From Chloroflexota bacterium (GTDB taxonomy: Bacteria; Chloroflexota; UBA11872), in NCBI GenBank assembly GCA_026707585.1, contig JAPOWQ010000025.1, forward strand, positions 124,001 to 188,000: a stretch of DNA of 64,000 nucleotides, given 5' to 3'. The translations under genes were made by a program, and so were the position numbers. Each line of letters opens with the position of its first letter. Positions within the stretch are counted from its first letter, which is position 1. Shown here one piece after another: positions 50,671 to 62,171 of the stretch. Under the pieces are notes generated by a model, which was given only the letters and a program-made list of their open reading frames with translations, had not been told where the DNA came from and searched no databases.

Positions 50671-50718
50671 CAGACCGGGGACATCATTTACACGTGTTCG
50701 GAGACATGGTTTACACAT
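50671..50718 (+). repeat. Left terminal inverted repeat of the IS481-type element
   Basis: 48 bases starting CAGACCGGGGACATCATTTA. It aligns to the reverse complement of 51879-51926 with about eight mismatches, all in the outer half. Confidence 0.85.
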
Positions 50719-50729
50719 CTGGGCATGAG

Positions 50730-51878
50730 ATGGAGGACCGGGATGTGCCGTTTGCGGAGCGACAGGTGAGCGATTTGCGGGCCGAGTTTGTGGCGTTGGC
50801 CAGCCAGCCGGGGACCAACCGGCGAGCGCTGTGCCAACGCTTTGCGATCTCGGCGCCGACCGGCTACAAGTGGCTGCGGCGCTACGCCGCGGAGGGACCC
50901 GCCGGGCTGCAGGACCGCTCGCGGCGGCCGCATCGCAGTCCGGCGCAGACGGCCCCGGCGACTGAGCAGGCCGTGCTGGCGCTGCGCGCCCAGCACCCCA
51001 CCTGGGGGCCGCGCAAGCTGCGCGTGCTGCTGGCCCGACAGGGCGTGCAGCCGCTGCCGGCGGCCTCCACCATCACCGCCATCCTGCGCCGCCACGACCA
51101 GCTCGACCCCGCCCAGGGCGCCGGCCAGCCGCGCGCCTGGCAACGCTTCGAGCACCCCTATCCCAACGCCTTGTGGCAGATGGACTTCAAGGGCGGCTGG
51201 CCCTGTGGGCCGGGCCGCTGCCATCCCCTGACCATCCTCGACGACCACTCGCGCTACGCCCTGGGGTTGGCCGCCGGTCCCAACCAGCGCACCGCCACCG
51301 TGCGCGGCCACCTGGTCACGGCCTTCCAGCGCTACGGCCTGCCCGATCGCCTGCTGGTCGACAACGGCAGCCCCTGGGGCAACCACCCGGCCCATCCCTA
51401 CACCCCGCTGACGGTCTGGTTGCGGCGCCTGGGCATCGCCGTCAGCCACAGCCGCCCGTACCACCCGCAGACCCTGGGCAAGGACGAGCGCTTTCACGGC
51501 ACCCTGGAGCGCGACTTCGGCCGGCAGCCGCCACGCCCCGATCTGGCCGCCTGGCAAGCCAGCTTCGACGCATGGCGCCACGAATACAACCAGGTGCGCC
51601 CCCATGAGGCGCTGGCCTTGGCCGTCCCCGCCAGCCGCTATCGCGTCAGCCCGCGGCCCTATCCGGCCGAGCTGCCGCCGCGGCCCTACGGCCCCGACGA
51701 CCAGCGCCGGCGGGTGGACGACGGCGGCCGGGTGTCGTTCCAGGGCCGGCGGCTGCGGGTCCCCAAGGGCCTGCGGGGCGAGCTGGTCGCCTTCCGCCCG
51801 ACGCCCACCGACGGCTGCTGGACCCTGCACTTTATGACCGACCACTTGGCCGACGTCGATCTCCGAGAACCCGCCTAA
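50730..51878 (+). CDS. IS481-family transposase
   Basis: 382 residues from the ATG at 50730; GTG 50694 and ATG 50706 are in frame but lie inside the terminal repeat. The N-terminal helix-turn-helix (NRRALCQRFAISAPTGYKWL) is followed by a second HTH region (TWGPRKLRVLLARQGV). The rve catalytic core has Asp in LWQMDFKGGW, Asp in LLVDNGSPWGN and Glu in GKDERFHGTLERDF, then the family end YNQVRPHEALAL. All three DDE residues are present and the frame is unbroken, so it is potentially active. Confidence 0.92.
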   Translation: MEDRDVPFAERQVSDLRAEFVALASQPGTNRRALCQRFAISAPTGYKWLRRYAAEGPAGLQDRSRRPHRSPAQTAPATEQAVLALRAQHPTWGPRKLRVLLARQGVQPLPAASTITAILRRHDQLDPAQGAGQPRAWQRFEHPYPNALWQMDFKGGWPCGPGRCHPLTILDDHSRYALGLAAGPNQRTATVRGHLVTAFQRYGLPDRLLVDNGSPWGNHPAHPYTPLTVWLRRLGIAVSHSRPYHPQTLGKDERFHGTLERDFGRQPPRPDLAAWQASFDAWRHEYNQVRPHEALALAVPASRYRVSPRPYPAELPPRPYGPDDQRRRVDDGGRVSFQGRRLRVPKGLRGELVAFRPTPTDGCWTLHFMTDHLADVDLREPA

Positions 51879-53213: not shown

Positions 53214-53882
53214 CTACGCGTCGCGAACGAAAACGCTGTCGCTCACGGTCTGCCCGATCGCCACCTCGTCGGTCCCAATCCGCACCACCAGCGGTCCATC
53301 GAAAGGCAGCCGTCGAACCACGCTGGCCTGCCTCCCCGGCACGAGTTGAATCTCCGTCAGGTATTCCAGCACCGCCCGATCGCGGTCCCGTACCCGCGCC
53401 ACCACGAAGTCCGTGCCGTCGGCAACCCCCGTCAACTGCCGGGCATCGTCGGCCTGCAGCGCGTCCAGCGCCTCGTTTGGTATCGAGTCCCCGTGCGGGT
53501 CCGTCGTCGGGTCGGACACCTTGGCCGCGATCCGCCGCTCCATTTCCTCGGAAATCACGTGTTCCAGCCGGTCGGCCTCCTCGTGCACGTCGTTCCAGTC
53601 GTAGTCCAGGAACTCCACCAGGAAGCGTTCGATCAGCCGGTGATGGCGAACCATTTCCAGTGCGTGGCGCTCGCCTTCGTCGGTCAGTTGCGCCCCCTGG
53701 TACCGCTGGTAGTCGACCAGGCCCTTCTGCTGCAGGCGCTGCAGCGCCACCGTCACCGCGCCCTGCGTGAGCTTCAGTTGACCCGCCAACTCGCCGGTCC
53801 CGACACGCCGCTCGTGCCCGCCTGCGTCGTAGATCGCCCGCAGGTAGTCCTGCTCGCTGGCCGAAATCCGCGGCGCTGGCAT
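53214..53882 (-). CDS. DtxR/MntR-family metal-dependent transcriptional repressor
   Basis: 222 residues from the ATG at 53882. N-terminal winged helix (SASEQDYLRAIYDAGGHERR, TGELAGQLKLTQGAVTVALQ, LQQKGLVDYQRYQGAQLTDE), then the metal-binding dimerisation domain with HHRLIERFLVEFLDYDWNDV, HEEADRLEHVISEEMERRI. A C-terminal FeoA/SH3-like domain (from about 145: RQLTGVADGTDFVVARVRDR) completes it. The family senses Fe, Mn or, less often, other metals. It faces a metal-handling cluster across a 72-base gap that holds a palindrome. Confidence 0.9.
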   Translation of the reverse strand: MPAPRISASEQDYLRAIYDAGGHERRVGTGELAGQLKLTQGAVTVALQRLQQKGLVDYQRYQGAQLTDEGERHALEMVRHHRLIERFLVEFLDYDWNDVHEEADRLEHVISEEMERRIAAKVSDPTTDPHGDSIPNEALDALQADDARQLTGVADGTDFVVARVRDRDRAVLEYLTEIQLVPGRQASVVRRLPFDGPLVVRIGTDEVAIGQTVSDSVFVRDA

Positions 53883-53908
53883 CGTGACTTGATTGAAGGG
53901 TGGGCTCG

Positions 53909-53923
53909 CAACCTTACAGGTTG
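53909..53923. promoter_or_regulatory. Palindromic candidate operator CAACCT-TAC-AGGTTG
   Basis: A perfect 6-3-6 inverted repeat in the divergent spacer between the DtxR-type regulator and the lipoprotein gene. It covers the start of the plus-strand -35 (53921). DtxR/IdeR operators are built from AGGTTA half-sites, so the AACCT/AGGTT arms fit the family, though in the opposite orientation. Confidence 0.5.
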
Positions 53924-53948
53924 GCGGTGGCCGTTGACTGGCTAGACT
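53921..53948 (+). promoter_or_regulatory. Predicted promoter of the lipoprotein gene
   Basis: TTGGCG (53921-53926), a 16-base spacer and TAGACT (53943-53948). Transcription would begin within a base or two of the GTG at 53955, implying a leaderless message. Confidence 0.4.
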
Positions 53949-53954
53949 GCCACT

Positions 53955-54929
53955 GTGGAGCACTCCAGCCCCGAGAGTCCGATTCGGACCCCTCGTGCCC
54001 GTCCGATTACCAGACGAACGCTGCTCGGCACGTTGGCCCTGGGGGCGTCGGCCCTCGCCGGTCTGCTGCCCGCCTGCGGCGAGCTACCCACCAACCCCCG
54101 GATCAGCGTCCTCCTGGCCGTCAACGAATTGCTTCCCGGTCCCCACCGCTTTCCCTTCACATTGGTGGACGGCGACGGCGGGCTGGTCACCGGCGCGAAC
54201 ATCAACGTGCGCTTCGTTCGCCTGATCGGGGAACGCGACGAGTTCCGCTTCGAGGCGCCGGCCCGCGAGCATGTCGCCGGCGCCAGCTACGACCACGTGC
54301 ACGCGGACGGCACGGTCCACGTCCACGACCACTCACGCTCCTACTACCTGGTTTCCGACAATCAGTTCGAGGAAGGCCTTTGGCGCGCCGACCTGGAAGT
54401 GGAGCCTGCCTTCGGCTCGGCCTACGCGGCCTCGACTGCTTTCCAGGTCGGACGGCGCACCTCGGCCCCCCGGGTCGGAGACGCCGCGCCGGCCTTCGCC
54501 AATCTCACGAGCCGCGACGCACCCAACCTTGAATCCCTGACGACTGCCGATCCACCCCTCCCGGCCCTTTACGAGCACTCGATCGTCGAAACTCTGTCCC
54601 GCGCCGAACCGTTCGTCGTGGCCTTCAGCACCCCTGGCTACTGCACGTCGGCGATGTGCGGACCGGTCACCGCCGTCGTTGGCAGTCTTTCTCGGGACTT
54701 TGGCGACCGCGTGCGCTTCATCCATCTCGAGCCCTTCGATCTCAACGTCGCCCGCACCGAGGGACGCCTCGTGTGGGGCGACGCCGCACGTGCGTGGAAC
54801 TTGGAAACCGAACCCTGGGTTTTCGTTATCGACGCGTCCGGCCGCGTGGCCGCGCGCTTCGAGGGCCTGGTCGGTGCGGTCGAACTCGAACCCGCCGTCG
54901 ACGCCGTGGCTGGTCCGCCGCTGAACTGA
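53955..54929 (+). CDS. Tat-exported lipoprotein with His-rich segment and thioredoxin-like domain
   Basis: 324 residues from a GTG. Twin-arginine signal TRRTLLGTLALGASALAGLL with RR at 20-21 and lipobox LPAC (Cys41). The next domain is Ig-like and carries a His-rich metal-binding stretch (YDHVHADGTVHVHDHSRSYY, about 115-134). The C-terminal about 120 residues are a thioredoxin fold with STPGYCTSAMCGP (CX4C), WVFVIDASGRVAARFEG. Related proteins are annotated as thioredoxin/SCO-like lipoproteins. Tat export implies folding or cofactor loading before secretion. Its stop overlaps the next start (TGATG). Confidence 0.75.
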   Translation: MEHSSPESPIRTPRARPITRRTLLGTLALGASALAGLLPACGELPTNPRISVLLAVNELLPGPHRFPFTLVDGDGGLVTGANINVRFVRLIGERDEFRFEAPAREHVAGASYDHVHADGTVHVHDHSRSYYLVSDNQFEEGLWRADLEVEPAFGSAYAASTAFQVGRRTSAPRVGDAAPAFANLTSRDAPNLESLTTADPPLPALYEHSIVETLSRAEPFVVAFSTPGYCTSAMCGPVTAVVGSLSRDFGDRVRFIHLEPFDLNVARTEGRLVWGDAARAWNLETEPWVFVIDASGRVAARFEGLVGAVELEPAVDAVAGPPLN

Positions 54930-55411
54930 TGCGTCGCTTCGCCCGCCTCCTGCCGGTGGTGGTTCTTCTTTTGGCGGCGACCTCAACACCGGCCCTGGCC
55001 CACGGCGGCGACCTCGTCTACACGGGCGCCACCGGTCCGTATCAGGTCCGCGCCTTCGCCAACTGGGCCGAAGGCTGGCTCGACTACTCCATCGATCTCC
55101 GCAACGTCTCCACCGGCGCGCGCATTCCCGGCGCGAAGGTCCACGTTACGGTCTTCGAAAACGGCGTGAACATCGCCCGGTACACCGCCTTCGAGTCGGG
55201 CGCCGTCTACGAGTTTGTCGAGCCAAGCCCCGAGGAAGTCCACTGGAATCTCGTGCTGGACATATCCAGCCCCCTCGGCCCCGCCAAGCTCACCCACGCC
55301 CTGGACCTGGCGCCCACCAATTGGGTCCTGCCCAGCGTGCTGGTCATTGGCGGCTTCTTCGCGGCCGTCGCCGCCCACACCTGGTCCGCCCGCCGCCGCG
55401 CCCGCGCCTAG
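54929..55411 (+). CDS. Secreted, C-terminally anchored small protein of the metal cluster
   Basis: 160 residues from the ATG at 54929, overlapping the previous stop by 1 base. Signal peptide LLPVVVLLLAATSTPALA is followed by an immediate His (AHGGDLVYTG), as in CopC-type proteins whose N-terminal His is a copper ligand. A beta-sandwich domain (VRAFANWAEGWLDYSIDLRN, AKVHVTVFENGVNIARYTAF) and a C-terminal membrane helix (WVLPSVLVIGGFFAAVAAHT) complete it. It overlaps the convergent CopC-CopD gene by 4 bases. Family not firmly recognised; periplasmic/cell-surface metal binding is inferred. Confidence 0.65.
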   Translation: MRRFARLLPVVVLLLAATSTPALAHGGDLVYTGATGPYQVRAFANWAEGWLDYSIDLRNVSTGARIPGAKVHVTVFENGVNIARYTAFESGAVYEFVEPSPEEVHWNLVLDISSPLGPAKLTHALDLAPTNWVLPSVLVIGGFFAAVAAHTWSARRRARA

Positions 55412-57663
55412 CTCCGCGCCGCCTCTGGCAGAGTCAGGATGAAGTTGATGATGTGCCAGGTATCCAGCTCGCCGTAGCGATCGCCGAATGCCGGCATCCC
55501 CGTGCCCTCGATCCCGTTGAACACAAATCCGAACAGCGCGTCGTCCGGGTGCAGCGGCACGTGGATCACCAGGTCCAGCGGCGGAGGATCCAGCGTGGCC
55601 GCCAGCGGACCGTCTCCGCGACCCGCCGGGCCGTGACAGCTCACGCACTCGGCCTCATAGATCTCGCGACCTGCGCTCACTGACGCGTCGTCCGGCGGAA
55701 TCGGGTTCACCGCCGAGGGCACGACGCCCTGCTGCGGCCCGATGATCAGCAGTCCCGCCCCCAGCAGAATCGCCGCAAACCCGGTCCCGGTCCCGGCCTG
55801 GCGCACGCGCGCCGCCCATCCCTGGCGCGCCAGCGTCGCCAGCGTCAGCACGAATCCCATCCCCGCCAGCGCCAGCCCCCAGAACCGCGTCGCCACCGTC
55901 GCGTCCACCTCCGCCACGCCAATCGCCGTGGGCGACCCGATGTTCAGCCGCACCGGCACCCTGGCATCGAACGCTCCCGGCTGCCGCACGATCGCCAGCA
56001 CCTGCCACGCCCCCGCCAGTGCGAACGCATCGGTCTCCGCTTCGAACGTCCCCTCCTCGGTCCGCACCGGGCGCTCCACGGTCGTCCCCAGGTCCGTGTC
56101 GAGATACCTCAGCTGCAACTCGATATCCGCCTCCGCCGTCCGGCCGCCGCTCGACACCACGTCAACCTCCAGCGTGTTTAGTCCCGGCCGCCCCGGCGCC
56201 ACCCGCACCCGCACCCTCGTATCGCCGCTTGCGCCCACACCTTCCACCGCCAGCGGCACGTCCCCGCTCACTTGCCGCGCCGGCTCCCGCTCCGTCAGAA
56301 CGCCCACAACGCCGAGCACGGCAACCGCCATCACGATCTCGGCGGCCACCAGCGTCCGCAGCGCCTTCGCCGGCCGCGCTCCTGCCCCGCCGGCCCCCGC
56401 CAGCCGCGGACGCGTCCACCCCAGGTTTACCCCGCCCAGCGCCAGCAGCGGCGCCACCAATGCCAGCTTGACGACCAGCAGCAGCCCGTATTCCGTGCTC
56501 CACAACCGCGCCGGCTCCACCACCTGCAACCAGGCGCTATACACGCCCGTCACCACGATCAACCCAACGGCCACCGTGGCGATGGCGGAGAACCGCGCCG
56601 CCACTTCCGTCAAGTGGACCGCTGCTGATCCAGTTGGCCGCGCATTGCGCGCATCCAACGCCACCAGCAGCAACACCGGCAAACCACCCACCCAGGCCCC
56701 CACCGCCAGCAAGTGAATCAGGTCGGCCACCAGCGCTGGCCCAATATCCACCAGCGCCGCCGCGTGGCTGCCCAACGAAATCGTCACCGCCATCACAATC
56801 CCCGACAGCGCCACGCCACCTAACGCAGCGGTCCCGCGCCGCTCGCCGGACGACGAACTCGCCTGATCGGCCGCGACTAGCGCCACCACCAAGGCCACAG
56901 TGCGTGAGATCCACAACGCGCCCCACTGCCCCGCCCCGAACACCTCCCCAAACCCCGCCAGCAGCGAGTCCCCGCCCAGGATCAGGATCTGCGTCCCCAG
57001 CAACCCGATCTGACCTGCCAGCGCCAGCAACCCTCCGCCCAGCAACAGCAGCGCCGTCCGCCGCTCCACGACCCGACGCCGCTCCGGCTGTGCCCCGCGT
57101 CGCTGCACCAGCGCCTGCAACGGCCCGCCAATCAACACCGCCGTGCCCACAAACAGCAGCCAGCGCGAAGCCGCCGCGGCCGGGCTCGATTCGATCGAAG
57201 CCACCGCCACCGCCACGTCCGCCGCCACCGGCTCGCCCACTCCGAAGGCAAACGACCCGCGAATCACGTGCCCGTCCACCACCGACAGCGTCCGCCACAC
57301 CACCACGTACGTGCCGTCCGCCAGCTCCCCCACCGGCACCAGCATCGCCGTGGGAGTGGTGGGATCGGGTTCCGTCGGACCCGTGGTCACCGGCTGCCCG
57401 TTGGCGTCCAGCACCTCCAGGCTGCTGAAGCCCAGGTCAATGGCCTCGCTGAACTCCGCATACACCACCGGCGGCGCTGGATCCACCGCCGTACCTGGAC
57501 TCGGCGACGAACGCACCAGGTTGGCGTGCGCGCCGGCCGGCGCGGCCACCAGCGCCAGCGCCGTCAGCGCGGCCAGCACCGCCAGGGCCAGCCGCTCGCG
57601 GCGGAGCCCAAGCCCCCGCCGCGGGCCGGATGCGCTACCCCGCGCCACGCCGACGGAACGCAT
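55408..57663 (-). CDS. CopC-CopD-(YtkA-like)-cytochrome c fusion protein
   Basis: 751 residues from the ATG at 57663. The signal peptide ends PAGAHANLVRSSPSPGTAV, the CopC start with the copper-ligand His at the mature N-terminus, and IRGSFAFGVGEP closes the CopC domain (about 40-140). About eight membrane helices of the CopD type follow (150-430). Next is an Ig-like segment resembling YtkA/FixH (VRVRVAPGRPGLNTLEVDVV), another helix, then a C-terminal class I cytochrome c with CVSCHGPAGRGDGPL and the Met ligand in GTGMPAFGD. CopC/CopD deliver or import copper; the attached heme domain suggests redox coupling. Confidence 0.88.
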   Translation of the reverse strand: MRSVGVARGSASGPRRGLGLRRERLALAVLAALTALALVAAPAGAHANLVRSSPSPGTAVDPAPPVVYAEFSEAIDLGFSSLEVLDANGQPVTTGPTEPDPTTPTAMLVPVGELADGTYVVVWRTLSVVDGHVIRGSFAFGVGEPVAADVAVAVASIESSPAAAASRWLLFVGTAVLIGGPLQALVQRRGAQPERRRVVERRTALLLLGGGLLALAGQIGLLGTQILILGGDSLLAGFGEVFGAGQWGALWISRTVALVVALVAADQASSSSGERRGTAALGGVALSGIVMAVTISLGSHAAALVDIGPALVADLIHLLAVGAWVGGLPVLLLVALDARNARPTGSAAVHLTEVAARFSAIATVAVGLIVVTGVYSAWLQVVEPARLWSTEYGLLLVVKLALVAPLLALGGVNLGWTRPRLAGAGGAGARPAKALRTLVAAEIVMAVAVLGVVGVLTEREPARQVSGDVPLAVEGVGASGDTRVRVRVAPGRPGLNTLEVDVVSSGGRTAEADIELQLRYLDTDLGTTVERPVRTEEGTFEAETDAFALAGAWQVLAIVRQPGAFDARVPVRLNIGSPTAIGVAEVDATVATRFWGLALAGMGFVLTLATLARQGWAARVRQAGTGTGFAAILLGAGLLIIGPQQGVVPSAVNPIPPDDASVSAGREIYEAECVSCHGPAGRGDGPLAATLDPPPLDLVIHVPLHPDDALFGFVFNGIEGTGMPAFGDRYGELDTWHIINFILTLPEAARS

Positions 57664-59062
57664 ACAACGCCAGGCCAACGCCGGTCATCAGACCCAGTCC
57701 GCCAACCGCCAGCCCGATCACCGCAACCCTGAGCGCGGCCGCCGCATCGTCCGTTGCGTCCCGCGCCTGCTGCTGCGCGGCCGACGCCACCCCGGCAATC
57801 TCGCGCGCGCTCGGCACCGGCCGCGGGAATTGCGCCTCCGTGGCCGACCGCACGTCATCGAATGTGCCGGGACCCGAGGTGAACGTCTCGTCGATCGGCA
57901 AGCCGTCAATCGTCCCCACAAATCGGAACCTGTACGGCCCTGGCACGGTCGGAATGAAGGGCGCAACGTAGCCACCGTCCTCGCCTGGGAGCGGCGAAAG
58001 AGCCATCTGTCGGGCGACACCTGAGGCCGACATATCCCCGGCCAGGTGCGTCACCTCCACCACCAGGCTGTTCGCCAGCCCCGTCACGCCGATCCGCTCC
58101 TGCCCGGCCTCGCCCACCTGCATGGCCACGGACGTATCGGGGTCCGGGATGTGGATCGTCGCTACCGCCTCGATCGTCTCGCCGTCGCGCGCGTACTCCT
58201 GGTGCATGTTCGTGTTCAACGTCACACGCACCTCGTTCATGCCCGGCGCCAGCTTCCCCAGGTGCAGGTACGGACTGTAGACCCGCCCCAGCCGCACCCC
58301 GTTCACGTACACGTGCGGATGCCCGTCGCCCGCCACGTTCGGGGCATTGATTCTCTCTGGCGCTAGCCTGAATCCCTGCGGCATCACCATCAGGTTCGCG
58401 CCACCCACCGGGTCCGGCTCCAGGCTGATCGCGACGCTCATCCCCGCGGGCGCCTCGACCTGCCCAACCTCTTCCGGCGCGGGCGGCATCGCCGGAACGC
58501 TGAGTGTCGTCGCCGCCTGCACCGTCTGCCCGCCTACCGCGTATTCGCTGTGACCATTCGCCTGCAGCGTCACGCGAATCTCACGGTCTCCGGGCGCAAC
58601 ACCCTTCAGGTGAAACCACTCGCCGTATGCCCGGCCCACCTTCTCGCCGTCCACGTATATGTGCGCGTGCCCCTCGCCGTCCACGTCCGCCTGGTTCACT
58701 CGCTCCGGCGCGAACTCAAACCCCGTGGGGATGATGTGCACGTTGATCCCGTCAATCGGATCGACCTCCGCCGTCACCTCCACCGACATGTCCGAGGTCT
58801 CCACCGTCCCGCCGTGCTCGTGACCGCCCTCCGATGCCTGGCTCAACTCGCCGCCGCTCGCGCGCGTCACCGACAGGTACACCCCATTCGGCTGCCCCTC
58901 GTACGCCGGCTCCACCAGGAACCCGACGTCAAACGTGAACCCGTGCACCTCACGTCCCTCATGCGCCCACACCACGCCAACGGCCGCTGCCAGTGCCGCC
59001 CCGGATAGGGCCAGGGCCAGCAGGCTGCGCCTCAGGCGCGGCAGGCGATGCCAGAAGCTCAT
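57635..59062 (-). CDS. Membrane-anchored protein with two HxH-containing repeats
   Basis: 475 residues. Signal peptide LLALALSGAALAAAVGVVWA is followed by HEGREVHGFTF. Two repeats of about 100 residues: FAPERVNQADVDGEGHAHIY...GEWFHLKGVAPGDREIRVTL and LAPERINAPNVAGDGHPHVY...SPYLHLGKLAPGMNEVRVTL. Each carries GHxH and another conserved His, plausible copper ligands. A third domain (VPGPYRFRFVGTIDGLPIDE) resembles copper-resistance Ig folds, and a membrane helix (VAVIGLAVGGLGLMTGVGLA) ends the protein. The gene overlaps the CopC-CopD gene by about 29-44 bases, so the two are cotranslated. Confidence 0.72.
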   Translation of the reverse strand: MSFWHRLPRLRRSLLALALSGAALAAAVGVVWAHEGREVHGFTFDVGFLVEPAYEGQPNGVYLSVTRASGGELSQASEGGHEHGGTVETSDMSVEVTAEVDPIDGINVHIIPTGFEFAPERVNQADVDGEGHAHIYVDGEKVGRAYGEWFHLKGVAPGDREIRVTLQANGHSEYAVGGQTVQAATTLSVPAMPPAPEEVGQVEAPAGMSVAISLEPDPVGGANLMVMPQGFRLAPERINAPNVAGDGHPHVYVNGVRLGRVYSPYLHLGKLAPGMNEVRVTLNTNMHQEYARDGETIEAVATIHIPDPDTSVAMQVGEAGQERIGVTGLANSLVVEVTHLAGDMSASGVARQMALSPLPGEDGGYVAPFIPTVPGPYRFRFVGTIDGLPIDETFTSGPGTFDDVRSATEAQFPRPVPSAREIAGVASAAQQQARDATDDAAAALRVAVIGLAVGGLGLMTGVGLALYAFRRRGAG

Positions 59063-59163
59063 TCATAAACCTCGCAGTTAAGGCGCATACCCATGGAACT
59101 CATCTCGCCGCCACGGGTCTTGCCCAGATTGCCCGCGCACACGTATGCGCGGATGCAGGCCAT

Positions 59164-59523
59164 CTACCGCAAGGCCGGCCTGGGCGGCGGCAGCGGCGGC
59201 CCAATGGCTGTCAGGCGCATCCGCCGGATATCGAGACCAACGCGCTCGAACATGCAAACCACCAGCACCACCGCCAGCAACGCCGGCATCACCCCCACCG
59301 GAAACGGCGACGACTGCTCCGGAAACTCGCCGGATGTCCCATCCGCCCCTTCCGCCTCCGCTGCCGGCATCGCCCACGGCAAGTGAATGTGGTCATGCCC
59401 CTCATGCCCACGCGGCGTAACCACCCCAAGCGCCGGCGCCGCACTCGTCACCAACGACGGCGCCAGCAAAGCCAGAGCGGCTAGCAGCAGGATGGCGGCA
59501 GGCACGACTCGCCGGATCTCCAT
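59164..59523 (-). CDS. Small His-rich membrane protein of the metal cluster
   Basis: 119 residues. N-terminal signal/anchor helix (VPAAILLLAALALLAPSLV), then a His-rich loop (RGHEGHDHIHLPWAMP), an acidic linker, and a second helix (GVMPALLAVVLVVCMFERVG) with a basic cytoplasmic tail. The HxxHDHIH cluster is a likely metal-binding site. It is the first gene of the minus-strand trio reading toward the CopC-CopD fusion, about 100 bases upstream of the repeat protein. No family recognised. Confidence 0.6.
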   Translation of the reverse strand: MEIRRVVPAAILLLAALALLAPSLVTSAAPALGVVTPRGHEGHDHIHLPWAMPAAEAEGADGTSGEFPEQSSPFPVGVMPALLAVVLVVCMFERVGLDIRRMRLTAIGPPLPPPRPALR

Positions 59524-59665
59524 ACAGCCAGACTATCTGAACTGAACGCACAAGAGCTCTGCCTGCTACCCGAAGCCGCATCGCTGTGCTCAGGGCTCCA
59601 GACGGCTTCAGATTCGGGCAGAATCCCGCCAGTCCAACTCTCTTCACTCACGAAAGCCATTCCCC

Positions 59666-60549: not shown

Positions 60550-60756
60550 ATGAACACAACTCGAGTATCGCTTAGTTGCTCGATTGCAATCCTGCCCGGC
60601 CGAGACACTGACGTTCCACGAACTAGCGCCCAGGAAAACCCTAGGCCTGAAGCAAACGATCCTTCGAGCTTCGGACCATCAGACAATGTAGCTTTCGGGG
60701 AGTCCCAGAAGCCGACGTACGCTGAGACTCTAGAAACTTCAGCAAGGCGGACTTGA
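60550..60756 (+). CDS. Possible small ORF upstream of the HsdR_N-like gene
   Basis: 68 codons from the ATG at 60550, ending in TGATG with the next gene's ATG at 60756. The coupling is the only argument for it. The protein is polar and low-complexity (EANDPSSFGPSDNVAFGESQ), without recognisable motifs or a Shine-Dalgarno. It may be spurious. Confidence 0.22.
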   Translation: MNTTRVSLSCSIAILPGRDTDVPRTSAQENPRPEANDPSSFGPSDNVAFGESQKPTYAETLETSARRT

Positions 60757-62171
60757 TGGCCAGAAATCCATTAGATCAAACTCTCGACACCATCCGCAGT
60801 CGCATTGAATCGCATCGCGGCGAGGGAGTCTCTGAGGAAGGCACCAAGATCGCCCTCATTAATCCGTTGCTGCGAGACCTGGGCTGGGATACTGAGAATC
60901 TTCGCGAGGTCTCTCCAGAATTCTCTTCATCAGGCGGTCGTGTCGACTATGCTTTAATCATTGATAATCAACCTCGTTTGCTTGTCGAAGCCAAGGCGCT
61001 AGATATCAATCTAGACAATCCAAAGTTGGCGATGCAGCTCACCGTCTACGCCGTCACGACTGGCGTAAGATGGGCGGTATTGACGAACGGCGACGAGTAC
61101 ATTATTTTCAATGCTTATGCGGAAGTTCCCATCGAAGAAAAAGTCTTTACGAGAGTCCGCATTAGCGATGAACATGTCCATTCCGCACAGGTCCTGAGTC
61201 TTCTCTCGCGAAGCGCAACGCTGAACGCTCTCCTCGATGCACACTGGCAGGAGGAGCTCGCTAAACGAGAGCGACAGCACGTCGATCAGAAAGTATTGGA
61301 CGCTCTGCGGGGATTGTTCGTGAAAGAACCGCCGGACGCATCCCTTGTGCGTCTTCTACGTAGGCAAGTTAGCGACCTGGCTCCCAGTGACATCAGAGAG
61401 GGTCTGCGAAGGACCATCGCAACGTTCGAGTCATCGCCTGACGAAGAGGTCAAGTCCAGAGTCCCTAAGCCCGTGAACCCTCTGATCTCGAAGCCTCCAC
61501 CAGCGGAATCCAGAGCATCAGACATGCCTGATACAGTCGTCGTACCCGCCCGTGAAAGAAATTTTCACGACACTTTCCTTGGTGAGAACCGCTGGTATGC
61601 AGTGAACATTAGCGAAGAACTGATTCCCCGTATGAAGTACATCGCGGTCTATCGGACAACGCCCGTATCGGCAATTACGCACATCGCACCGGTCAAGTCG
61701 ATAGAGCCTTGGGAAGGCTCGGAGAAGTTTGTAGTCAATTTTAGTGAGCCAGCCGGAGAGATTGGCCCCATCAAGCTAGGACGTGGTATACCCCCGGCAG
61801 GTCGACGCTACACGTCCAAAGCAGCCCTCGAAGCGGTTACGAGCATTGCCGACCTCTGGGGAGTTAATCCAAAGGCCGAGCTTAAGCAGATCATTGACGC
61901 GCAAATCCTGAATCCGCCGCTCGAGGTATTCGCAACCTACCGAGGGCAGAAGCAAACAGCCCGAATTGAGCGTGACGGAACTCTAACGTTTCAGAGCCAG
62001 AAGTATCAGTCGCTATCGGGAGCCGGAGCTGCTGCTAAACGCGCAGCTGGATACACGGGGCCGAAGCCTGCTACCCAAGGATGGACCTTTTGGAAGTTCA
62101 TAGATGAAGACGGGCTTGGCAAACCTATAAACGCTCTGCGTAGGCGATTCCTGAAGCAGCAAGAGTCCTAG
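60756..62171 (+). CDS. HsdR_N-type nuclease domain protein with C-terminal RAMA-like domain
   Basis: 471 residues from the ATG at 60756. The N-terminal 200 residues are the type I restriction R-subunit N-terminal domain: PLLRDLGWDTENLREVSPEF, then PD-(D/E)xK residues Asp64 (RVDYALI), Glu78 and Lys80 (LLVEAKAL), then QLTVYAVTTGVRWAVLTNGD. A middle segment (DTFLGENRWYAVNISEELIP, KYIAVYRTTPVSAITHI) is unassigned. The C-terminus (GTLTFQSQKYQSLSGAGAAA, TQGWTFWKFI) fits the RAMA/DUF4357 type associated with restriction enzymes. No helicase, HsdM or HsdS follows. The gene is clearly less GC-rich than its surroundings, so horizontal acquisition is likely. Confidence 0.82.
   Translation: MARNPLDQTLDTIRSRIESHRGEGVSEEGTKIALINPLLRDLGWDTENLREVSPEFSSSGGRVDYALIIDNQPRLLVEAKALDINLDNPKLAMQLTVYAVTTGVRWAVLTNGDEYIIFNAYAEVPIEEKVFTRVRISDEHVHSAQVLSLLSRSATLNALLDAHWQEELAKRERQHVDQKVLDALRGLFVKEPPDASLVRLLRRQVSDLAPSDIREGLRRTIATFESSPDEEVKSRVPKPVNPLISKPPPAESRASDMPDTVVVPARERNFHDTFLGENRWYAVNISEELIPRMKYIAVYRTTPVSAITHIAPVKSIEPWEGSEKFVVNFSEPAGEIGPIKLGRGIPPAGRRYTSKAALEAVTSIADLWGVNPKAELKQIIDAQILNPPLEVFATYRGQKQTARIERDGTLTFQSQKYQSLSGAGAAAKRAAGYTGPKPATQGWTFWKFIDEDGLGKPINALRRRFLKQQES

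What the first reader, a model, noticed from the sequence alone, without database searches (positions are those of the whole stretch)
53214..59523. Self-contained metal (probably copper) handling cluster with unusual parts
Six adjacent genes share metal features: a DtxR/MntR-type regulator, a Tat lipoprotein with a DHVHADGTVHVHDH stretch plus a CX4C thioredoxin domain, a secreted protein starting AHGGD, a CopC-CopD-cytochrome c fusion, a protein with two GHxH repeats, and a His-rich (HEGHDHIH) membrane protein. Two plus-strand and three minus-strand genes converge with a 4-base overlap. CopC/CopD families handle copper, but a DtxR-type regulator and an attached cytochrome c are not the standard copper setup. 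The set may be a copper-delivery or heme/copper redox system; that is inference.
Basis: partly seen in the sequence, partly recalled or inferred. Interest (0 to 1): 0.62.

Follow-up and report, generated by a model that had tools for sequence, protein, structure and literature searches.

The report
Chloroflexota copper-uptake and oxidase-loading gene cluster
Six neighbouring bacterial genes most likely capture copper outside the cell, bring it through the membrane and load it onto the oxygen-breathing enzyme, using a heme-linked copper importer and a likely stand-in for the usual copper chaperone Sco, which this genome lacks.

Summary
In detail: six genes at the stated places with the stated motifs, including the 4-base convergent overlap. 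They form two modules. Module A is a DtxR/MntR-type regulator, a Tat lipoprotein and an AHGGD protein; it is syntenic in all 19 family genomes searched. Module B is a HEGHDHIH protein, a GHxH protein and a CopC-CopD-cytochrome c fusion. Its last two genes recur together in other Chloroflexota families, and the fusion occurs in 21 families sampled. The modules adjoin only in this genus; in the sister genus they sit on different contigs.

The lipoprotein fuses a YtkA-like beta-sandwich (CopC/CrdA-like fold) to a CX4C thioredoxin fold. Relatives lie beside cox genes in five families, and are fused to an intact Sco domain in one genome. This genome has a CuA cytochrome oxidase but no detectable Sco or PCuAC. 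Across 248 COX2-bearing genomes the lipoprotein family and Sco are complementary between families, but not within families.

Best reading: Cu(II) acquisition plus CuA loading, with the lipoprotein as a CtaK/Sco stand-in and the fused heme as a candidate Cu(II) reductase. The regulator has Mn/Fe-type ligands; its likely operator is near-unique per genome and absent from module B's promoter. New variant of a known kind; nothing tested at the bench.

The parts
53214..53882 (-). P0001: DtxR/MntR-type metalloregulator with FeoA-like C-terminal domain (222 aa)
   Evidence: Pfam Fe_dep_repress, Fe_dep_repr_C and FeoA above cut-off; phmmer best PDB chain 5zr4, E 5e-38. Motifs SEQDY, HHRLIER, VHEEADRLEH give D12, H81, E85, H100, D104, E107, H108 as ligand-site residues (assignment from family knowledge). 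A second DtxR-type gene lies elsewhere in every family genome.
53909..53923 (+). Palindrome CAACCTTACAGGTTG, probable operator of P0001 between the divergent genes
   Evidence: CAACCTnACAGGTTG conserved in 10 of 13 genus genomes (one more has one mismatch). With up to 1 mismatch it is the only site in 4 of 5 genomes searched, the fifth having one extra mismatched site. A related core lies at the same place in 18 of 19 family intergenic regions by regex, the window's copy differing by one base.
53943..53948 (+). -10-like TAGACT about 6 nt before the GTG start (possible leaderless promoter)
   Evidence: Sequence inspection and conservation in the genus; not found by the sigma-70 scan, so inference.
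53955..54929 (+). P0002: Tat lipoprotein, YtkA/CopC-like beta-sandwich plus CX4C thioredoxin fold (324 aa)
   Evidence: AF2 model pLDDT 90.7; Foldseek hits to CopC/PcoC/CrdA for one domain and TlpA/DsbE-like proteins for the other; 18 of 71 relatives match Pfam YtkA and 18 match Thioredoxin_2.
54291..54332 (+). His-rich stretch DHVHADGTVHVHDH (residues 113-126)
   Evidence: HxHxDGxxHxH in 37 of 71 relatives.
54642..54659 (+). CX4C motif C230-C235 followed by GP
   Evidence: C230, C235, P227, E286 and P287 invariant in 71 relatives; H257 nearly invariant.
54929..55411 (+). P0003: secreted protein with C-terminal TM segment, predicted mature N-terminus HGGD
   Evidence: H25, G26, G27, H123, H150 invariant in 10 relatives; no Pfam or NCBIfam match.
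55408..57678 (-). P0004: CopC - CopD - sandwich-like region - TM - cytochrome c fusion (756 aa; the ATG at 57663 is an alternative start)
   Evidence: Pfam CopC E 2e-18, CopD E 5e-23, Cytochrome_CBB3 E 3e-11.
57238..57528 (-). CopC domain of P0004; mature N-terminus HANL, Cu(II)-site residues H51, D135, H137
   Evidence: Aligns with solved CopC 5icu and YcnJ CopC 9c14; the three residues are invariant in 22 divergent copies.
55438..55683 (-). Cytochrome c domain of P0004: CVSCH, axial M728, extra H706 and H710
   Evidence: All invariant in 22 copies; nearest PDB relative is Thioalkalivibrio cytochrome c552.
57635..59062 (-). P0005: secreted protein with predicted mature N-terminus HEGR, two GHxH repeats inserted in a conserved core, C-terminal TM
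   Evidence: Core conserved and next to CopC-CopD in several other families; repeats absent in the two most divergent genus members.
59164..59523 (-). P0006: small membrane-anchored protein with HEGHDHIH
   Evidence: Found in 10 of 12 named genus loci, and upstream of P0005/P0004 homologues in the sister genus and in family f2.
59530..59535 (-). -10-like TAGTCT about 6 nt before the ATG of P0006; no CAACCT palindrome here
   Evidence: Conserved in the genus; inference.

Best explanation
A copper acquisition and delivery locus serving a caa3-type cytochrome c oxidase. Module B: P0005, and perhaps P0006 and P0003, bind Cu(II) outside the membrane. The CopC domain of P0004 takes Cu(II) at an N-terminal-His site and passes it to CopD for entry into or across the membrane, and the fused cytochrome c moves an electron at that step (most simply Cu(II) to Cu(I)). 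Module A: lipoprotein P0002 does in one chain what CtaK (YtkA) and Sco do together in Bacillus, holding or reducing copper and the CuA cysteines during CuA assembly. P0001 represses module A in response to a divalent metal. Shown: the domains, conserved ligands, synteny, fusions, and absence of detectable Sco and PCuAC. Inferred: the direction of copper flow, the electron step, the CuA role and the inducing metal.
For: CopC Cu(II) residues, CopD His and heme ligands invariant across 22 divergent fusions. P0002 family is YtkA plus thioredoxin. P0002 relatives lie beside CoxABC/CtaG in families f11, f22, f66, f68 and f76, and one 573-aa protein joins an intact Sco (HCPDVCP) to an intact P0002 (FCPTTACGP). 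This genome has CuA-type CoxB, CoxA, CoxC and CtaG, but no Sco (0 of 19 family genomes) and no PCuAC (0 of 41 class genomes). P0002 family: 108 COX2+ versus 6 COX2- genomes; among COX2+ genomes, both 54, P0002 only 54, Sco only 124, neither 16 (39.5 expected), Fisher OR 0.13. P0005 core is next to CopC-CopD in several families, and a separate cytochrome c gene is next to CopC-CopD in four genomes. In B. subtilis, CopC and CopD support oxidase function under copper limitation and CtaK is thought to act with Sco (PMC13344008).
Against: The Sco/P0002 complementarity is between families; stratified by family it vanishes (MH OR 1.7). P0001 has the same ligand-site residues as the second paralogue and is not a known copper sensor type. 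The P0001 palindrome is absent upstream of module B, so co-regulation is not shown. The modules are apart in the sister genus. The HxxxH of the cytochrome domain also occurs in a cytochrome c552 that is not fused to CopD. No expression or binding data exist.
Confidence: 0.58

Rival explanations
1. P0002 is a thiol-disulfide reductant (TlpA/ResA-like) that keeps CuA or apocytochrome c cysteines reduced and carries no copper; the cluster is an oxidase and cytochrome c maturation set.
For: Thioredoxin fold with TlpA/DsbE-like neighbours; family members hit Thioredoxin_2 and dsbE.
Against: The attached YtkA/CopC-like domain with a His-rich hairpin, the CX4C spacing instead of CXXC, and the fusion to Sco point to copper.
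Confidence: 0.2
2. Module A is a Mn- or Fe-responsive unit unrelated to copper that came to lie beside the copper module B in this genus.
For: DtxR/MntR-type regulator with Mn/Fe-type ligand residues; its palindrome occurs only at module A; modules separate in the sister genus.
Against: P0002 relatives are linked to cox genes and Sco, and the YtkA domain is a copper-linked family.
Confidence: 0.14
3. A copper-resistance cluster: CopC and CopD with His-rich proteins sequester excess copper outside the membrane.
For: CopC and CopD were first described in resistance operons; His-rich proteins can buffer copper.
Against: No copA-type multicopper oxidase, P-type ATPase or copper-efflux regulator among the six genes; CopC is the Cu(II)-site type; CopC-CopD without CopA/CopB has been linked to uptake (PMC7785015, PMC13344008).
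Confidence: 0.08

Closest known systems
Bacillus subtilis YcnKJI with CtaK (YtkA) and Sco
   Same: CopC-CopD importer next to a secreted membrane-anchored partner, plus YtkA and thioredoxin-fold factors serving CuA.
   Different: YtkA-like and thioredoxin domains are in one lipoprotein with CX4C instead of CX3C; the importer carries a cytochrome c; the regulator is DtxR-type, not YcnK; P0005 matches no family model.
Sco1/SenC (PF02630)
   Same: Membrane-anchored thioredoxin fold with two Cys and a nearby His; linked to cox genes.
   Different: No PF02630 match, CX4C spacing, extra YtkA-like domain; some relatives carry both domains fused.
Corynebacterium glutamicum CtiP/CopC/PCuAC
   Same: Sco-less CuA oxidase linked to CopC and CopD.
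   Different: CtiP fuses CopD to CtaG, not to cytochrome c, and C. glutamicum has PCuAC; here PCuAC is absent.
Thioalkalivibrio copCD plus cytochrome c552 (thiocyanate dehydrogenase locus)
   Same: CopC and CopD near a closely related cytochrome c.
   Different: There the proteins are separate and serve a copper enzyme, thiocyanate dehydrogenase; here they are fused.
MntR/DtxR regulators (for example ScaR, IdeR, MntR)
   Same: All three domains and the ligand positions.
   Different: The target is a putative copper-delivery gene; the palindrome is near-unique in each genome searched.

Membership tests
CopC, Cu(II) (C0-1) type | N-terminal His of the mature protein plus distal Asp and His | tested here: met
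   H51, D135, H137 aligned to solved CopC and invariant; signal-peptide cleavage itself is predicted, not tested.
CopCD/YcnJ-type importer | CopC and CopD domains in one chain | tested here: met
   Pfam and NCBIfam domain matches; below the NCBIfam CopC and CopD equivalog cut-offs.
CopCD/YcnJ-type importer | C-terminal YtkA domain | tested here: inconclusive
   No Pfam match in residues 470-600, though the length and position would fit.
CopCD/YcnJ-type importer | Copper import activity | not testable with these tools
   Needs uptake assays.
Sco (PF02630) | Match to the Sco family model with CX3C | tested here: not met
   No PF02630 match in P0002 or anywhere in this genome; the motif is CX4C.
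CtaK/YtkA | YtkA-like domain in an extracytoplasmic lipoprotein | tested here: inconclusive
   P0002 itself has no Pfam match; 18 of 71 homologues match PF13115, best E 7e-9; lipobox Cys conserved in 90% or more of relatives.
DtxR/MntR | HTH, metal-binding/dimerisation and SH3/FeoA-like domains | tested here: met
   below the NCBIfam MntR equivalog cut-off (170.6 of 350 bits).
DtxR/MntR | Which metal activates it | not testable with these tools
   Ligand-site residues suggest Mn or Fe; inference.
YcnI (DUF1775), for P0005 | Match to the DUF1775 family | tested here: not met
   No Pfam match in P0005 or in most relatives, although position, N-terminal His and C-terminal TM are alike.
PCuAC (PF04314) | Family match in the genome | tested here: not met
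   0 of 41 class genomes.

The most novel reading that the evidence does not exclude
The CopC-CopD-cytochrome c protein is a copper importer with its own built-in Cu(II) reductase or electron relay, and the YtkA-CX4C lipoprotein is an undescribed CuA-loading chaperone family that replaces Sco in many Chloroflexota.
Probability: 0.3. Interest if true: 0.75.

Novelty: new variant of a known kind. Interest (0 to 1): 0.55.

Why it matters
How Cu(II) held by CopC becomes usable by the cell is open: a 2026 study of the B. subtilis importer states that no reductase is known to be associated with it (PMC13344008). A cytochrome c fused to CopC-CopD in at least 21 Chloroflexota families, or encoded next to it where split, gives a concrete candidate to test. 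The P0002 family would explain how a large set of Chloroflexota with CuA oxidases manage without Sco or PCuAC.

Tried and rejected
The PDB fold search with the P0005 model was uninformative: model pLDDT 60.7, hits to unrelated Ig-like proteins with TM below 0.25. Pfam and NCBIfam gave no family for P0003, P0005 or P0006. Peroxiredoxin Q, which also has CX4C (from memory), was considered and dropped because the fold matches are TlpA/DsbE-like. The sigma-70 scan found no promoter. A plasmid search for the fusion found only CopC domains. Reading Sco/P0002 complementarity as independent evidence was tested and rejected: it holds across genomes (p 2e-11), genera (p 1e-4) and barely across families (p 0.045), but not within families. 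The CopC family review of Lawton 2016 is not held, so whether CopCD-cytochrome c fusions were noted there is unknown; paper searches here found no mention.

Full report
OBSERVATION. The six ORFs exist as described. The regulator has all three DtxR/MntR parts. The lipoprotein (P0002) starts at GTG 53955, about 70 bases from the regulator's ATG at 53882, divergently. P0002 and P0003 run on the plus strand. P0004, P0005 and P0006 run on the minus strand, and genes 3 and 4 overlap by 4 bases (55408-55411). P0003, P0004 and P0005 are all predicted to start with His once the signal peptide is removed (HGGD, HANL, HEGR), and that His is invariant in the relatives aligned. This triple N-terminal His recalls CopC-type copper sites; for P0003 and P0005 that is inference.

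CONSERVATION. In the class sample (41 genomes) P0002 is found in 30, including all 19 of the family. In all 19 the order regulator - P0002 - P0003 is kept. In the 12 named genus loci P0004 and P0005 follow in every case and P0006 in 10. In the sister genus genes 1-3 are together, but P0006-P0005-P0004 is on another contig. So the locus is two modules that adjoin in this genus. The P0005-core plus CopC-CopD pair is also found in other families (f2, f22, f26, f32, f41, f45, f46 and others).

THE FUSION. Full-length CopC-CopD-cytochrome c matches occur in 46 genomes of 21 families in a 301-genome phylum sample (my count). Across 22 divergent copies the CopC Cu(II) residues (H51, D135, H137), CopD residues such as H305 and H322, the CXXCH heme site, M728, and two further His (H706, H710) are invariant. 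In four genomes CopC-CopD lacks the tail and a separate cytochrome c gene lies next to it (G142, G276, G246, G177), the split counterpart of the fusion. The closest solved cytochrome is Thioalkalivibrio c552, an electron acceptor for a copper enzyme (PMC9456337) in an organism that has copCD beside that enzyme's gene (PMC5744179). In the B. subtilis importer both CopC and CopD are needed under copper limitation and no associated reductase is known (PMC13344008). The fused heme is therefore a natural candidate, but no result here shows electron transfer.

THE LIPOPROTEIN. The AlphaFold2 model is good (pLDDT 90.7). Foldseek against the PDB finds CopC, PcoC and CrdA for a beta-sandwich and TlpA/DsbE-like proteins for a thioredoxin domain. 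Relatives match Pfam YtkA (18 of 71) and Thioredoxin_2 (18 of 71), though P0002 itself matches neither. Invariant residues include C230 and C235; H257 is nearly invariant. It does not match the Sco model. Relatives lie within about 12 kb of CoxABC and CtaG in G072, G282, G293, G221, G304 and G233. In G064 a 573-aa protein joins a Sco domain with HCPDVCP to a P0002 domain with FCPTTACGP; G222 and G305 have similar fusions, and in G222 the first Cys of the P0002 part is lost.

SCO AND OXIDASE. This genome has a cox cluster with a CuA-type CoxB (motif CAEFCGTAHALM), CoxA, CoxC and CtaG. No family genome has Sco (0 of 19) and no class genome has PCuAC (0 of 41). In the phylum sample P0002 relatives occur in 108 COX2-positive and 6 COX2-negative genomes. 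Among 248 COX2-positive genomes: both 54, P0002 only 54, Sco only 124, neither 16, against 39.5 expected (Fisher OR 0.13, p 2e-11; genus level p 1e-4; family level p 0.045). These thresholds and gene lists were set by hand. Stratified by family there is no association (MH OR 1.7), so the pattern reflects few lineage-level events and is suggestive only.

REGULATION. A palindrome CAACCTnACAGGTTG lies between the divergent genes in most genus genomes. Allowing one mismatch, it is the only site in four of five genomes searched; the fifth has one extra mismatched site. A related core sits at the same place across the family. It is not present upstream of P0006. The regulator has a paralogue elsewhere in each family genome; in this genome the paralogue lies beside an ABC transporter ATPase gene. 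Both carry the same ligand-site residues by inspection, of Mn/Fe type. Thus copper sensing by P0001 is not supported; a Mn- or Fe-responsive switch of an oxidase-related gene is as likely.

CONCLUSION. The kind is known, copper delivery to oxidase; the parts list is a new variant. Whether the fused heme reduces copper and whether P0002 replaces Sco are both open and testable.

Noticed in passing
L068:11669-12730 (-) versus window 57635-59062: In the divergent genus member the P0005 homologue has, where this genome has two GHxH repeats, a different His-rich insert that looks cupredoxin-like by eye (WHSHLEP, VVWTNGT); another member (L070) has almost none. No Pfam match was found for it.
   Followed up: partly
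window 50694-51878: An IS481-family transposase gene lies between a SpoIID-like gene (named by eye) and thyX, just upstream of the cluster.
   Followed up: no
L170:6416-8137, L171:7107-8705, L172:7866-9470: Sco-P0002 fusion proteins in another Chloroflexota family; in L171 the P0002 half has lost its first cysteine.
   Followed up: partly
window 60753-62171: ORF with a type I restriction HSDR_N domain and a RAMA domain next to the cluster, in a stretch of lower GC (0.57).
   Followed up: no
L139:9545-10225 (-): Second DtxR-type regulator of this genome, beside an ABC transporter ATPase gene; it has CPHG where P0001 has DPHG.
   Followed up: partly
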